Below, in pieces: positions 32,985 to 44,607 of a stretch of DNA of 64,000 nt. Positions within the stretch are counted from its first letter, which is position 1, and each line of letters starts with the position of its first letter. A model generated the notes under the pieces. That model was not told the DNA's origin, did not search any database, and worked only from the letters and a program-made list of their open reading frames with translations. The position numbers and the translations under genes are program-made. The stretch lies in the NCBI RefSeq assembly GCF_900095135.1, contig NZ_LT605205.1, positions 2,356,001-2,420,000 on the forward strand, read 5' to 3'. Source of the stretch: Proteiniphilum saccharofermentans (GTDB lineage Bacteria > Bacteroidota > Bacteroidia > Bacteroidales > Dysgonomonadaceae).

Positions 32985-33605
32985 ATGAACACAAGCAAAC
33001 CTTCAACCGGAACGGGACACTATATCCACCTGTTCCCCATTGTAATGATCCTGCCCAGTATGATCGCCTGTTTTGCTTATGCCAATATATCGCAGAGCTA
33101 CTGGGATCTCTTTGGGTTACTGATTATCATTGCTTTTGCTTCCATGTTGCTAGGCGGGTTGTTGGGTTTTCTGTTTGCCATTCCAAAACTGAACAAAAAC
33201 TACAACCCTCACGAAGATTATGACAGAAGTACAAAGTACATGCCGAATACCAACCTGGAAGATGTGTCGGACTGGCTCACCAAGATAATTATCGGGGTTA
33301 CCCTTACGCAATTGGGCAGGATACCCGGGTACCTGCAAAGTATGGCCGATTATCTTATTGACAACAGTAACTTGATGTTACAGGTGGATTCAGCCAGACC
33401 GCTTCTGATTGCACTGATCATCTACTCTTTCGTTGCCGGATTTATTATCGGTTATTCCTACACAAGAATTTACCTCCCGAATCTATTCTCTATCATGGAG
33501 GAGAACAGGAAACAAAAGGCTGAGATCGCTCTATGGAAGGAAGAGGTCCGGAAAAAAGAAGAACAATTATGCAACCACCCAAACTCGGAAGACAAACCTT
33601 CCTGA
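32985..33605 (+). CDS. Three-helix membrane protein with coiled-coil tail, of the S8-protease module
   Basis: 206 residues. Hydrophobic helices at about 16-34, 41-66 and 139-163; between the last two is a conserved-looking cytosolic loop with LGFLFAIPKLNKNY and NTNLEDVSDWLTKIIIGVTLTQLG. The C-terminal 35 residues are strongly charged and helical (NRKQKAEIALWKEEVRKKEE), probably a short coiled coil. The FLF.IP ... NTNLE..SDWLTKI block recalls, from memory, the membrane anchor of predicted conflict-system proteins (pYEATS-type), which is unverified. Its last 37 bases overlap the protease gene, so the two are translationally coupled. Likely role: membrane tether or sensor for the protease. Confidence 0.6.
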   Translation: MNTSKPSTGTGHYIHLFPIVMILPSMIACFAYANISQSYWDLFGLLIIIAFASMLLGGLLGFLFAIPKLNKNYNPHEDYDRSTKYMPNTNLEDVSDWLTKIIIGVTLTQLGRIPGYLQSMADYLIDNSNLMLQVDSARPLLIALIIYSFVAGFIIGYSYTRIYLPNLFSIMEENRKQKAEIALWKEEVRKKEEQLCNHPNSEDKPS

Positions 33606-34795
33606 AAGACAATATTGCCCCGGCCGCGTCCAATACCCCCCGTTATACCGGCCGCTATTTCCTGATCCTCGATAAAAACAGTAATGAGGTACTGGAAACC
33701 ATTCGTCTGCTTGAAAAAAGATGGGGATTATCCGTAGCCACCACTGCCGATTTTATTACCATGCCGCCGAATGAAAATCTATTAAAAGATGCCGATGCCC
33801 TCGTATTCAATGAGCTGGGCATTGCGCTGGTCGGTGTGGAAGAAGATAAGGTAGTCCAGATGAAATTATCGGGAAGTGGTTTTATGGTTGTACCAGAGAA
33901 AGTGGTATATATTCCGGATGAAGTATCTGCAGATAACGATATCAATAACGGGGCAACCTGGGGAATAGACATTACCAAAGTGCTCCATTCGCCATACACA
34001 GGCGCAGCAGTCAAGGTAGCGGTATTGGATACCGGATTCGACACCACTCATCCCGATTTTAAAGAACGGGAGATCACAACCACTTCGTTTGTTCCCGATG
34101 AGCCGGTCGATGATCTCCACGGACATGGTACCCATTGCATCGGTACGGCATGCGGATCGGTCAATGAACAAGGAACACGTTACGGAGTGGCGAGCGATGC
34201 ACATATCTATGTGGGAAAAGTTCTAAGCAACCAGGGGAGCGGCGCCCAGTCGTGGATACTGAACGGCATGGCCTGGGCAGCCAATAATGGTTGCAAGGTA
34301 TTATCCATGTCCCTCGGCTCCCCCGTATCGGAAGGCGAGAGTTACGATATAGCCTATGAACGGGCTGCCCAGTTCGCTCTATCTAAAGGAGCGCTCATTA
34401 TGGCTGCAGCGGGTAACGACAGTCAACGGTCAAAAGGTCTATTCAGTCCAGTGTCAAGCCCTGCCGATTGTCCGTCTATCCTTGCCGTAGCCGCAGTAGA
34501 CTCGGAACTCCAGGTCGGTGATTTCTCAAATCGCGCTATTAACCCTTCGGGGTTGGTCGATATTGCTGCACCGGGAGTCAATGTCTACTCTTCCTGGTCC
34601 ATGCCTGCAAGATATCGTACCATCTCAGGCACCAGTATGGCTACTCCTTATGTAGCCGGAATTGCAGCCCTCTTCTTCGAGAAATATCCGGATGCAACTC
34701 CTGCGATGATTGAAGAAGAATTGAGGAAAAATGCCCGAGCACTCCCTTTACCGCCCGAAGATGTGGGTGTAGGACTCTCCATAGCCCCTAAATAA
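33569..34795 (+). CDS. Cytosolic subtilisin-like (S8) serine protease
   Basis: About 408 residues from the ATG at 33569, which follows an AGAAGAA-type ribosome site; a longer start at 33533 is less likely. The catalytic triad is present: Asp in VAVLDTGFDTTHPD, His in HGHGTHCIGTACG and Ser in SGTSMATPYVAG, with the oxyanion Asn in AAAGNDSQ. There is no signal peptide or membrane segment, which is unusual for a subtilase; the N-terminal 120 residues form an alpha/beta region (RYFLILDKNSNEVLETIRLLE) ahead of the catalytic domain. It overlaps the membrane-protein gene and is followed at six bases by the I9-like gene, so all three are one operon. Confidence 0.85.
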   Translation: MQPPKLGRQTFLKDNIAPAASNTPRYTGRYFLILDKNSNEVLETIRLLEKRWGLSVATTADFITMPPNENLLKDADALVFNELGIALVGVEEDKVVQMKLSGSGFMVVPEKVVYIPDEVSADNDINNGATWGIDITKVLHSPYTGAAVKVAVLDTGFDTTHPDFKEREITTTSFVPDEPVDDLHGHGTHCIGTACGSVNEQGTRYGVASDAHIYVGKVLSNQGSGAQSWILNGMAWAANNGCKVLSMSLGSPVSEGESYDIAYERAAQFALSKGALIMAAAGNDSQRSKGLFSPVSSPADCPSILAVAAVDSELQVGDFSNRAINPSGLVDIAAPGVNVYSSWSMPARYRTISGTSMATPYVAGIAALFFEKYPDATPAMIEEELRKNARALPLPPEDVGVGLSIAPK

Positions 34796-34801
34796 AAGAA
34801 T

Positions 34802-35032
34802 ATGCGACAGATCATAATTACCATATCTGAGATCTACTTAGACAAGCTGACCATTGTAGCGGAACAACTTCATAGGGAAGGGTTAATCATAACCCATCTC
34901 TATGAGTTCGGGGTAATCATTGGTGCAGCAGAGGAGGAAGTCATCCCTAAAATACGCAATTACAAAGAAGTGACATCTCTGGTAGAAGACAAACAAATAA
35001 GCATTCCTCCCCCCGATTCGGAGATCCAATAA
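34802..35032 (+). CDS. Small I9/propeptide-like protein, putative inhibitor of the adjacent protease
   Basis: A 76-residue protein: ITISEIYLDKLTIVAEQLHREGL then GVIIGAAEEEVIPKIRNYKEVTSLVEDKQIS. The beta-alpha-beta-beta-alpha-beta pattern, with a terminal hydrophobic strand VTSLVEDKQI, is that of subtilisin propeptide/inhibitor I9 domains, which place their C-terminal tail in the protease active site. Here it is a separate gene, six bases after the S8 protease, whose own N-terminus does not obviously contain an I9 domain. Inhibitor or folding-chaperone activity is inferred from fold pattern and context. Followed by a terminator. Confidence 0.55.
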   Translation: MRQIIITISEIYLDKLTIVAEQLHREGLIITHLYEFGVIIGAAEEEVIPKIRNYKEVTSLVEDKQISIPPPDSEIQ

Positions 35033-35086: not shown

Positions 35087-35102
35087 CCCGCTAAATAGCG
35101 GG
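35087..35102. terminator. Bidirectional terminator between the protease module and tRNA-Lys
   Basis: CCCGCTA / TAGCGGG with an A6 run on the left and CTTTTCCTTTT on the right. It serves the plus-strand operon and the minus-strand tRNA. Confidence 0.75.
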
Positions 35103-42067: not shown

Positions 42068-42110
42068 TTAGTAAATGCAACTAAATATCATTTATTAATG
42101 GTCAAAAAGA

Positions 42111-42138
42111 TTCCCAAGGGAACGCGTTCCCTTGGGAA
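42111..42138. repeat. 28-base perfect palindrome in the IS30 leader
   Basis: TTCCCAAGGGAACG followed by its exact reverse complement, with no loop. It lies between the IS end and the transposase ATG (42170). It could block read-through transcription from outside, limit ribosome access or bind protein. Confidence 0.85.
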
Positions 42139-42169
42139 AGTTGGCCAAAATGTTTATAATAGTTGTATT

Positions 42170-43150
42170 ATGAAAAAATTTAAACAATTGACCGTAGAGC
42201 GAAGATACCAAATATCAGCTCTACTTCAAAGGGGAAGTACACAAAAACAGATTGCAGGGATTGTAGGAGTATCGGAATCAACCATAAGTCGGGAGTTGTC
42301 CCGCAATAAAGCCAAGCGTGGGAAGTATTCTGCGGCTCGCGCTCAAATGCTTGCCGATGAACGCAAGGAACGCTTCAAGCGCAAGCGTAGCTTCAGTTCA
42401 TCCATGCAGCGGTTCATTGACAAAAAACTACGGGAAGAACAGTGGTCTCCCGAACAGATTAACGGCTATTGCAAAGTCAACGGCATTGAGATGGTAAGCG
42501 TGGAAAGGATTTATCAGCACATTCGCAAAGACAAGGCGCAAGGAGGAGATTTATACACTTTCTTACGCCACAAGCTCAAGCACAGAAGACGCCCGGTATC
42601 GGATACCCGGGTACACATTAAAGACAGGGTGGGGATTGAACACCGACCGGCAATCGTAGACCAGAAAAAACGATTTGGAGATTTGGAAATCGATACCGTA
42701 ATCGGCAAAGACGGCAAGGGTGCCATCTTAACCATCGTGGAGCGAACCAAGGCGTTTGTGCTAATGGAAAAATTGGAAAAGGGGAAGAATGCCGAGGCAG
42801 TAAAGGAGACTGTCATCCGTCTGTTAATGCCTTATAAAGGAAAGATTCACACCATAACATCCGATAACGGCAAGGAGTTTGCAGAACACAAAGCCATTGC
42901 AAGCGCTTTGGATATTGATTTTTACTTTGCCAATCCATACAGTTCCTGGGAAAGAGGATTGAACGAATACACCAATAAACTCGTACGCCAATACATCCCG
43001 AAAGGAACTGACTTTAATGATGTTAATAGTGAAAAAGTGAAGGAGATACAATACAAATTAAACCGAAGACCAAGAAAAAAATTGAACTATAAAACACCGG
43101 CTCAATTATTTTTTGCATCTTTGGAAAATAAAATTGCATTTGCGAGTTGA
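42170..43150 (+). CDS. IS30-family transposase
   Basis: About 326 residues from the ATG at 42170 (MKKFKQLTVERRYQI); the longer upstream frame runs through the palindrome and is unlikely. HTH at about 15-50 (STQKQIAGIVGVSESTISREL); DDE residues are visible as Asp in GDLEIDTVIG, Asp in TSDNGKEFAEH and Glu in WERGLNEYTNKLVRQY. Length and motifs are intact, so it may be active. Confidence 0.93.
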   Translation: MKKFKQLTVERRYQISALLQRGSTQKQIAGIVGVSESTISRELSRNKAKRGKYSAARAQMLADERKERFKRKRSFSSSMQRFIDKKLREEQWSPEQINGYCKVNGIEMVSVERIYQHIRKDKAQGGDLYTFLRHKLKHRRRPVSDTRVHIKDRVGIEHRPAIVDQKKRFGDLEIDTVIGKDGKGAILTIVERTKAFVLMEKLEKGKNAEAVKETVIRLLMPYKGKIHTITSDNGKEFAEHKAIASALDIDFYFANPYSSWERGLNEYTNKLVRQYIPKGTDFNDVNSEKVKEIQYKLNRRPRKKLNYKTPAQLFFASLENKIAFAS

Positions 43151-43290: not shown

Positions 43291-44607
43291 CATTAGTGTC
43301 CCATTAAAATTGGGACGTTATTAAAAATCAAATAAACTTGGCCCATTGAGGTCACATCGTTCTTTGTCATATTGAAAAATAGTTTTGTTAAAGAGGTCTT
43401 TTAGATGAGTTCTATCCGTCAGTGAAATGCTTAAAATTTGGAGAACTTCATATGTGCTTCTATCAAGTTGCATATCATGTTGAACAATCGCAACTAAACA
43501 ATAAGTACACATGGCGGCATAGATTTGTATTCTTACCGCATTCTCTGTTGTTCCCCAAAACTTTTTGATTTTGAGGTGTTGCTTTAACCATTTGAAGAAA
43601 AGTTCCACTTGCCAACGATTCCTGTAAAGTTCGGCGACTTGAAGAGCCGAAATATGCATTGCATTGGTTAAGAATACAAATTCACGTTCTTGCTCTTCAT
43701 CCCAATATCTGACCAGGCGAAGTTGCCTGGGATAATATTGCTTGGGATAAAAGCCGGTCAATTCGATAATCGTATCCGAAAGGACATTCTCAGGCAACCT
43801 GCGTTTCCATCTAATGGATTTGTATTGAAGATTCTTCTTTGCCCTGACAACAAAGTATGCTTCTATTTGATGAATCCTATACAACATCTTAAAATTGTTG
43901 TATGCGCGGTCAAATATGTAATAGGAGCCAGGTTCATAAGGAATCTCTTTCATTGCCTTTGAGTCGTGTACGGAAGCTTCGGTAATATGGAAGAATGTTG
44001 GTATCTGTGTTTCCACATCATATAGCGTATGTATCTTGATGCCCCCTTTCTTCTTACGAAATTTTGCCCACCAGAAGACTGCAAGGCATAAATCGATCGT
44101 TGTTGAATCGAAAGCATAGATATTTCCGCCAAGTTTGAAGATGTCTGATTTTCGTTTTTGTCGGGCTTCACTTACCAGGAAGTAGGCATACTCTTCAAAA
44201 ATGTGATAATCCCTATCTTGATTGGCTCTTGCCAAAGATGATTTTGACACATTCTTGCCCATTCCTAGGTGATAGCATTTGGAGTGATGCGCATCAAGGG
44301 CAACTATCAAATCTCTCAGGCTTTCACGATTAGCGAGTTGGCCAAACATCAAAGCAAGCAGTTGATTCCAGCAGGTGAAATGCTTTACATAGCGGTTCCC
44401 CTGATACTTGCTAACTATACGCCTAAACTTATCTTCATTCAAAAATGAAATTAATTGAGCAAACACATATTTCTCTTTATTCATCGCAGCCTGTTGTTAT
44501 TAACTGCAAAGTTATAAATTGAAATCGTCGCGCTCGAAAAATATGCCTAACTAACTATATTTCAAATATTTCAAAGAGCAATTTGTGATTTTAATGGGAC
44601 AGCAATG
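43291..44607 (-). mobile_element. IS4-family insertion sequence
   Basis: A 1317-base element. Both ends read CATT, two variable bases, then TGTCCCATTAAAAT as an inverted repeat, and are flanked by an exact 9-base duplication AGTAAAGGT (43282-43290, 44608-44616). It lies 133 bases from the IS30 element, in the former upstream region of the lipoprotein operon. Confidence 0.9.
43321..44484 (-). CDS. IS4-family transposase
   Basis: A 387-residue DDE transposase with an N-terminal DUF4372-type domain (LISFLNEDKFRRIVSKYQG). Catalytic residues: Asp in IYAFDSTTIDL, Asp in YIFDRAYNNF and Glu in the YRNRWQVELFFKWLKQHL segment (Y-2-R-3-E-6-K type). Full length, no frameshift, so probably active. Confidence 0.93.
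   Translation of the reverse strand: MNKEKYVFAQLISFLNEDKFRRIVSKYQGNRYVKHFTCWNQLLALMFGQLANRESLRDLIVALDAHHSKCYHLGMGKNVSKSSLARANQDRDYHIFEEYAYFLVSEARQKRKSDIFKLGGNIYAFDSTTIDLCLAVFWWAKFRKKKGGIKIHTLYDVETQIPTFFHITEASVHDSKAMKEIPYEPGSYYIFDRAYNNFKMLYRIHQIEAYFVVRAKKNLQYKSIRWKRRLPENVLSDTIIELTGFYPKQYYPRQLRLVRYWDEEQEREFVFLTNAMHISALQVAELYRNRWQVELFFKWLKQHLKIKKFWGTTENAVRIQIYAAMCTYCLVAIVQHDMQLDRSTYEVLQILSISLTDRTHLKDLFNKTIFQYDKERCDLNGPSLFDF

What the first reader, a model, noticed from the sequence alone, without database searches (positions are those of the whole stretch)
32985..35032. Three-gene module: membrane protein, cytosolic subtilisin, free-standing I9-like protein
The S8 protease has a full Asp/His/Ser triad but no signal peptide. 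Its gene overlaps a three-helix membrane-protein gene by 37 bases and is followed six bases later by a 76-residue protein with the strand/helix pattern of a subtilisin propeptide inhibitor. A terminator closes the unit. A protease held at the inner face of the membrane with a separate inhibitor is what a regulated-proteolysis or abortive-infection switch would need. The membrane-protein loop (FLFAIP ... NTNLEDVSDWLTKI) resembles, from memory, anchors of predicted conflict systems. I know of no described system with exactly this composition.
Basis: partly seen in the sequence, partly recalled or inferred. Interest (0 to 1): 0.75.

Follow-up and report, generated by a model that had tools for sequence, protein, structure and literature searches.

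The report
Cytosolic subtilisin with propeptide-like partner gene
A bacterial protein-cutting enzyme that appears to stay inside the cell is encoded right beside a tiny protein that looks like a detached safety cap for it, and the same pair of genes turns up in widely separated kinds of bacteria, which suggests an unstudied on/off control of protein cutting.

Summary
The three genes are real and in the stated order: membrane protein (TM, 32985-33605), subtilase without signal peptide (S8, 33569-34795) and a 76-residue protein (SM, 34802-35032). The conserved unit is the pair S8+SM. TM was found beside 13 of the 80 nearest S8 loci, all 13 in the window's own genus group.

SM is predicted to have the fold of subtilisin propeptides (I9-like); such propeptides, and the free-standing inhibitor POIA1, are among its best PDB matches, though no E-value is below 0.001. 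An SM-type ORF follows S8 in 69 of the 80 nearest S8 loci (50 of 61 outside the window's group), in five phyla, and in eight of eight opened plasmid loci, adding Pseudomonadota and Deinococcota.

Most SM end in a tail with PP and, five places on, Q. A fused model suggests that the tail enters the substrate cleft; proline at P1' would then resist cutting. I infer a lasting inhibitor in trans.

In the genus the cassette is patchy and sits at different sites. I found no defence island. Inhibition, trigger and biological role are untested; abortive infection is neither shown nor excluded.

The parts
32985..33605 (+). TM: 206-residue membrane protein with three hydrophobic segments and the motif NTNLEDVSDWLTKII; accessory of the cassette in this genus group
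   Evidence: ORF, hydropathy, homologues aligned; in 19 of 37 genus genomes, all SM-positive
33569..34795 (+). S8: 408-residue subtilase without signal peptide
   Evidence: PF00082 E=3.7e-55; Asp/His/Asn/Ser present; nearest PDB relatives are subtilisins
33644..33922 (+). N-terminal domain of S8 (about residues 26-118), probably its own prodomain
   Evidence: conserved TGR[YH] ... EKVVYIPD region; weak profile similarity to SM (hhalign P=6.8e-4); no Pfam match at the level expected for I9
34802..35032 (+). SM: 76-residue free-standing I9-like protein
   Evidence: predicted fold and PDB matches; 24 of 37 genus genomes; SM-type ORF after S8 in 69 of 80 nearest loci
34988..35029 (+). SM tail (residues 63-76, DKQISIPPPDSEIQ region), predicted to enter the substrate cleft of S8
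   Evidence: motif counts; disordered alone, block pLDDT 64 and 57; strand in the fused homologous model
35087..35102 (+). hairpin that may end transcription
   Evidence: scan, not above shuffled expectation (3 found, 3.3 expected)

Best explanation
The core is a two-gene cassette: a cytosolic subtilase and a detached, propeptide-like inhibitor that acts in trans. Shown by computation: S8 has an intact subtilisin active site and no signal peptide; SM is encoded directly downstream, co-occurs with S8, and is predicted to have the I9 fold. Supported, not proven: SM docks on S8 like a propeptide and its tail enters the substrate cleft. Inferred: the PP pair of the tail falls at P1'-P2', where proline is cut poorly, so SM is a lasting lock and not a propeptide that is consumed; S8 matures with its own N-terminal domain and SM then keeps the mature enzyme shut until SM is lost or displaced. 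In Proteiniphilum and its close kin TM probably places the enzyme at the inner membrane or passes a membrane signal. The cassette is an accessory that comes, goes and moves.
For: S8. Pairing: SM-type ORF after S8 in 69 of 80 nearest loci, 50 of 61 outside the window's group, same strand, gap at most 250 bases in 67 of 69; first profile round, seeded with 8 genus and 2 other sequences, already found 65. Evenly drawn phylum sample: 7 of 345 genomes have a close S8, and all 7 have a small ORF of this type after it, 4 by profile and 3 (one genus) by reading only. Plasmids: 8 of 8 opened of 10. Genus: close S8 in 23 of 37 genomes, all 23 SM-positive. Fold; PDB matches 3cnq_P TM 0.70/0.75, 2z56_B 0.67/0.77, 1spb_P 0.61/0.65, POIA1 0.56/0.56. 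Docking: in a fused homologue (L106) SM core pLDDT 97-98, pTM 0.82, a strand appears in the tail just before LAPP, and the protease segment SGS at 101-103 is assigned strand. Decay: G011 lacks the close S8 and keeps only an SM remnant. Distances of S8 and SM correlate, r=0.85 over 68 pairs, uncorrected for species relatedness.
Against: No experiment. Sequence-level I9 membership is weak: the window SM has no Pfam match, PF05922 matches 9 of 50 relatives with best E 0.0059, and unrelated proteins outrank Tk-subtilisin propeptides in the PDB profile search. No Foldseek E-value is below 0.001 and other ferredoxin-like folds are listed too. Neither coordinates nor PAE of the fused model were seen, and parts of its S8 are at pLDDT 52-60. 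No covariation of SM tail type with the S1 pocket. 15 of 69 SM lack the PP...Q tail, and 11 of 80 S8 loci lack SM.
Confidence: 0.7

Rival explanations
1. SM is mainly a folding helper in trans for S8 (as subtilisin propeptides are) and is then degraded; inhibition is a by-product.
For: I9-like fold; subtilisin propeptides help folding (established for subtilisins; stated in the abstract passage of PMC6993865).
Against: S8 keeps an N-terminal domain of its own; the conserved tail with PP looks made to resist cutting (inference).
Confidence: 0.12
2. Same molecular pair, but the role is ordinary intracellular protein turnover, like Bacillus intracellular subtilisin, with SM as a safety catch.
For: No signal peptide; a Bacillus intracellular serine protease is among the PDB relatives (7y6m, E=2.9e-35); many of the genus copies lie beside housekeeping genes.
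Against: Patchy: close S8 in 7 of 345 genomes of the phylum and SM absent from 13 of 37 genus genomes; PDB secreted subtilisins score better than the intracellular one.
Confidence: 0.35
3. Defence or abortive-infection switch: a signal removes SM and S8 kills or stalls the cell.
For: Accessory, patchy, at different sites with empty sites; also on plasmids, one beside a DndB-annotated and a cytosine-methyltransferase gene; S8 matches the PADLOC 'subtilase' profile at 1e-27 and IetS at 4.9e-14; TM kin to a protein with a weak pYEATS match.
Against: Ten window neighbours gave only generic PADLOC matches; the PADLOC matches of S8 cover the general protease domain; no relative of SM in viral contigs and only 3 phage records with partial S8 matches.
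Confidence: 0.2
4. SM is not an inhibitor but an adaptor, substrate or tag that S8 trims after the conserved Gln.
For: In 11 of 69 SM residues follow the conserved Q.
Against: I9-like fold and predicted docking; 43 of 69 SM end at the Q, with nothing to trim.
Confidence: 0.1

Closest known systems
Free-standing subtilisin-propeptide-like inhibitors of family I9: Pleurotus POIA1, yeast peptidase B inhibitor, Arabidopsis SPI-1, Toxoplasma TgMIC5, Plasmodium SUB1-ProM (named in passages of PMC6993865)
   Same: Small separate gene product with predicted propeptide fold (POIA1 TM 0.56/0.56); SUB1-ProM also lies beside subtilase genes.
   Different: Bacterial, cytosolic, in an apparent operon with one subtilase; a tail with PP and Q, which I did not compare residue by residue with those proteins; no inhibition data.
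Subtilisin propeptides (Pfam PF05922, e.g. 1spb_P, 3cnq_P, Tk-subtilisin 2z56_B)
   Same: Predicted order of strands and helices and TM-scores up to 0.70/0.75.
   Different: Separate gene; most relatives carry a longer tail with PP; below Pfam's cut-off in sequence.
Bacillus intracellular subtilisins (e.g. 7y6m)
   Same: Subtilase without secretion signal; sequence similarity E=2.9e-35.
   Different: From recall those have a short N-terminal extension; here S8 has an N-terminal region of about 130 residues and a paired SM gene.
pYEATS-type membrane anchors (PF20305-bearing TM proteins)
   Same: TM shares the membrane segment with the SDW[LI]TKII motif with L056, whose C-terminus matches PF20305 weakly.
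   Different: The window TM ends in a short charged tail and has no pYEATS match; nine of 14 aligned genus TMs have instead a C-terminal domain of about 80 residues.
IetAS anti-phage system (IetS subtilase)
   Same: S8 domain matches IetS profiles (E=4.9e-14).
   Different: IetS profiles are 749-795 positions long and the match covers about 130 of them; no IetA match among ten neighbours.

Membership tests
Peptidase family S8 (PF00082) | Profile match above the curated cut-off | tested here: met
   187.7 bits against 21.8
Peptidase family S8 (PF00082) | Asp/His/Ser triad and oxyanion Asn | tested here: met
   81 of 81 aligned sequences
Peptidase family S8 (PF00082) | Proteolytic activity | not testable with these tools
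   needs an enzyme assay
Inhibitor family I9 (PF05922) | Profile match above the curated cut-off | tested here: not met
   no match for the window SM; L054 relative 13.8 bits against 21.2; 9 of 50 relatives match at E<=1, best 0.0059
Inhibitor family I9 (PF05922) | Propeptide fold (strand-helix-strand-strand-helix-strand) | tested here: met
   predicted model; subtilisin propeptides among the best PDB matches, highest listed query TM-score 0.70 with 3cnq_P, no E below 0.001
Inhibitor family I9 (PF05922) | C-terminal tail in the protease active-site cleft | tested here: inconclusive
   strand assignments and confidence in a fused homologous model fit it; coordinates and PAE not seen
Inhibitor family I9 (PF05922) | Inhibition of a subtilase | not testable with these tools
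   needs a Ki measurement
pYEATS-type anchor protein | pYEATS domain (PF20305) | tested here: not met
   no match in window TM; weak match only in the homologue L056
IetAS anti-phage system | Adjacent IetA ATPase | tested here: not met
   no IetA match among TM and SM and ten neighbours
T7SS mycosin (TIGR03921) | Score above the curated cut-off | tested here: not met
   143.9 bits against 278.75

The most novel reading that the evidence does not exclude
A broad bacterial class of protease/antiprotease cassettes that work like toxin-antitoxin pairs: a cytosolic subtilase held by a detached propeptide that a proline-proline tail across the active site has turned into a lasting lock. A membrane or infection signal (through TM in Proteiniphilum) would release the lock and start controlled self-digestion.
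Probability: 0.22. Interest if true: 0.8.

Novelty: new variant of a known kind. Interest (0 to 1): 0.6.

Why it matters
In the paper whose passages I read (PMC6993865) the named free-standing propeptide-like inhibitors come from fungi, a plant and protists, and protein peptidase inhibitors are called relatively sparse in prokaryotes. A bacterial enzyme/inhibitor operon found in seven phyla, whose small gene is labelled 'hypothetical protein' in each of the eight plasmid records that I opened, would give these proteins a function, make a group of cytosolic subtilases testable, and show how a propeptide that is normally consumed can become a lasting inhibitor. The tail hypothesis predicts simple assays.

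Tried and rejected
Trio as the unit: rejected. TM was not found in 67 of the 80 nearest S8 loci, including all 61 outside the window's group (some of the 67 are cut by a contig end shortly upstream), nor in 5 of 24 SM-positive genus genomes.

SM restricted to the genus: my first impression (1 of 393 genomes of the order with the genus profile). It was a limit of sensitivity, overturned by following S8.

Covariation of the SM tail with the S1 pocket: tested, none seen.

'Invariant C-terminal Q76': alignment A1 suggested it, but I had cut rows to the matched 76 residues. In full ORFs 43 of 69 end in Q, 11 of 69 continue after it and 15 of 69 are of other kinds.

SM as a relative of the S8 N-terminal domain: hhalign P 0.0065, 0.081 and 6.8e-4 (probability 27%) with different alignments; a hint only.

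Other recurrent neighbours: among 581 neighbouring ORFs of at least 80 residues the family with most loci outside the genus group was SM itself (17); the others were reversed frames of S8, families of related actinomycetes, or generic enzymes and regulators.

Virus and defence links: viral contigs, none confirmed of 91 pattern matches; phages, 3 records with partial S8 matches; PADLOC on ten neighbours, generic matches only; PHROGs, S8 matches a phage 'protease' family, SM and TM none.

C-terminal domain of TM in nine relatives: weak MarR-type PDB match (E=0.026), left unassigned.

Literature: the ten searches listed no paper that by title or abstract start treats a bacterial free-standing propeptide-like partner of a subtilase; the library is open-licence PMC only, and I read passages of three papers, no whole paper.

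Full report
What is there. The nearest named S8 locus outside the window is Proteiniphilum acetatigenes DSM 18083 (84% identity), so the window is from Proteiniphilum or very near it; it lies in a 4.41 Mb single-contig genome. Three same-strand genes are present as described. TM 32985-33605 has three hydrophobic segments. S8 33569-34795 overlaps it by 37 bases, matches PF00082 at E=3.7e-55, and has Asp154, His186, Asn283 and Ser356, as do the 80 homologues aligned with it. SM 34802-35032 encodes 76 residues without a Pfam match. A hairpin at 35087-35102 may end the unit, but shuffles give as many.

Conservation within the genus. SM was found in 24 of 37 same-genus genomes (window included) and in none of 24 other genomes of the order, and with the genus profile in 1 of 393 genomes of the order, the window's own. 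The close S8 (E below 1e-160) is in 23 of the same 37, all SM-positive. The 24th, G011, has only a more distant S8 (2e-96) on another contig; its SM is a remnant in front of rimP. TM is in 19 of the 37, all SM-positive, and in none of the 13 SM-negative (hypergeometric p=2.4e-6, uncorrected for relatedness). Of the 20 genus loci first fetched, four (L031, L032, L034, L042) have S8+SM without TM upstream and two (L029, L041) are cut by contig ends.

Site. Of 22 genus loci with the cassette compared, 13 have it between one conserved gene and rimP, and two more (L029, L041), cut by contig ends, have rimP on their side. The five loci of the window's own clade (L023-L027) show neither neighbour, nor does L060; L061 has the first gene about 2.7 kb upstream and no rimP in the stretch. 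A 23rd locus, L059, holds the remnant at the rimP site. In five genomes without the cassette, and in G000 and G021 where it lies elsewhere, the same stretch leaves about 0.2-0.4 kb between the two matches, with no room for it. The cassette is accessory and has occupied different places; gain, loss and movement cannot be told apart in detail.

Beyond the genus. I searched 7,786 stop-to-stop frames of these loci with an SM profile. The first round, seeded with ten sequences (eight of the genus, L053 and L054), gave 65 frames at E<1e-4; the last gave one SM-type ORF in each of 69 loci, on the same strand and downstream of S8 (E-values up to 4e-4). The gap is at most 250 bases in 67 of 69, the others 298 and 719. 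Without the 19 loci of the window's group it is 50 of 61. The 69 include Bacteroidota, Cyanobacteriota, Actinomycetota, Acidobacteriota (L118) and Bacillota (L122). Without SM: L099, L100, L102, L108, L109, L112, L114, L126, L131, L138, L142. In a less biased sample, 345 genomes drawn evenly from the phylum, 7 (window included) have an S8 at E<=1e-60. All 7 have a small ORF of this type after S8: four by profile (E<1e-15), three of one genus by reading only, since the profile gave 0.28 for one and nothing up to 0.5 for the other two. One of the seven, G709, has a second S8 copy after the SM that lacks the catalytic residues. Ten plasmid records hold a close S8; I opened eight, and in each a gene for 74-87 residues, annotated 'hypothetical protein', follows. 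Seven of the eight match the SM profile at E<1e-5 and the Vibrio one at 0.0015, in a search of these eight only.

What SM is. With 45 aligned sequences the model is confident over residues 1-60 (block means 92-94) with the order strand-helix-strand-strand-helix-strand, and poor over the last 16 (64 and 57). Foldseek lists subtilisin-family propeptides prominently: 3cnq_P (TM 0.70/0.75, rmsd 2.0), 2z56_B (0.67/0.77), 1spb_P (0.61/0.65), and POIA1 (1itp, 0.56/0.56). No E-value is under 0.001 (best 0.013), and other ferredoxin-like proteins such as MORF9 and NapD are listed too. By sequence the I9 link is weak: PF05922 is the commonest Pfam match but for 9 of 50 relatives only (best E 0.0059), and in the PDB sequence search Tk-subtilisin propeptides (E=0.11) come behind unrelated proteins. 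SM also resembles the N-terminal domain of S8 (hhalign P=6.8e-4 over 39 columns, probability 27%; other alignments 0.0065 and 0.081): a hint that SM is a detached copy of the prodomain.

The tail. In 53 of 69 SM a PP pair lies near the end; two places before the last PP stands I or L in 40 of 53, one place before P or A in 37 of 53, and five places after it Q in 46 of 53. SM ends with Q in 43 of 69, runs on after the Q in 11, and 15 are of other kinds. To ask where the tail goes I used a homologous locus (L106) where S8 and SM are in one frame, reading the stops as glycine, with 38 aligned rows. In that model the SM core has pLDDT 97-98, pTM is 0.82, the three residues TIR before LAPP are a strand, and the protease segment SGS at 101-103 is a strand. 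I recall this region as the one that pairs with P2-P4 of substrates in subtilisin. The simplest reading is that the tail lies in the cleft with A or P at P1 and P at P1'. I saw neither coordinates nor PAE, parts of the protease are at pLDDT 52-60, the last four residues are at 46, and the comparison with the SM-only model is between different sequences; so this is support, not proof. The protease part matches subtilisins (target TM up to 0.85).

Mechanism. S8 has no signal peptide and probably works in the cytosol. It keeps an N-terminal domain that looks like a prodomain. A separate inhibitor from the same operon would hold the mature enzyme; proline at P1' would make this lasting (inference). 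The remnant SM in G011 fits an inhibitor without use once its enzyme is gone, but it is a single case. What releases the enzyme is unknown. TM, in the genus found only with the cassette, may place it at the membrane; a TM homologue with a weak pYEATS match is the only lead to signalling.

Comparison and novelty. The passages of PMC6993865 that I read name Pleurotus, yeast, Arabidopsis, Toxoplasma and Plasmodium examples of free-standing propeptide-like inhibitors and call protein inhibitors relatively sparse in prokaryotes. Passages of two conflict-system papers (PMC8195603, PMC7159879) mention trypsin-like or subtilisin peptidases in other arrangements, not this pair. My ten literature searches listed no bacterial case; the library is open-licence PMC only. 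I rate this a new variant of a known kind: known folds and a known principle, in an apparent bacterial cytosolic operon with a distinctive tail and wide spread. Abortive infection is neither supported nor excluded.

Noticed in passing
L054:8127-9527: Second S8 copy next to an S8+SM pair (genome G709) in which the catalytic Asp and Ser motifs are changed (LANG for LDTG, SGIASATA for SGTSMATP): a likely pseudo-protease.
   Followed up: partly
L028:1877-2119 and eight other genus TM genes: Nine of 14 aligned TM proteins have an extra C-terminal domain of about 80 residues, perhaps winged-helix (weak MarR match, E=0.026), absent in the window's clade.
   Followed up: partly
L152:2069-3552: On a Vibrio alfacsensis plasmid the S8/small-gene pair lies between a gene annotated DndB and a DNA cytosine methyltransferase gene.
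   Followed up: no
L151:3748-6149: On a Streptomyces plasmid the pair is followed by a large protein annotated as serine protease.
   Followed up: no
G007:C206:58200-59405 and G011:C19:6848-8050: A second, more distant class of S8 (E about 1e-97) in two genus genomes.
   Followed up: no
L057:3371-7445: TM homologue in a run of genes with a small unknown protein and an M15-type peptidase, which looks like a gene neighbourhood of its own.
   Followed up: no
window 42098-43150 and 43321-44484: Two ORFs that look by eye like transposases, 7-9 kb downstream of the cassette; no family search made for that.
   Followed up: no
L156:2032-3343: Streptomyces avidinii plasmid: S8 is annotated without its N-terminal domain and overlaps an upstream 462-base gene, perhaps a split gene.
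   Followed up: no
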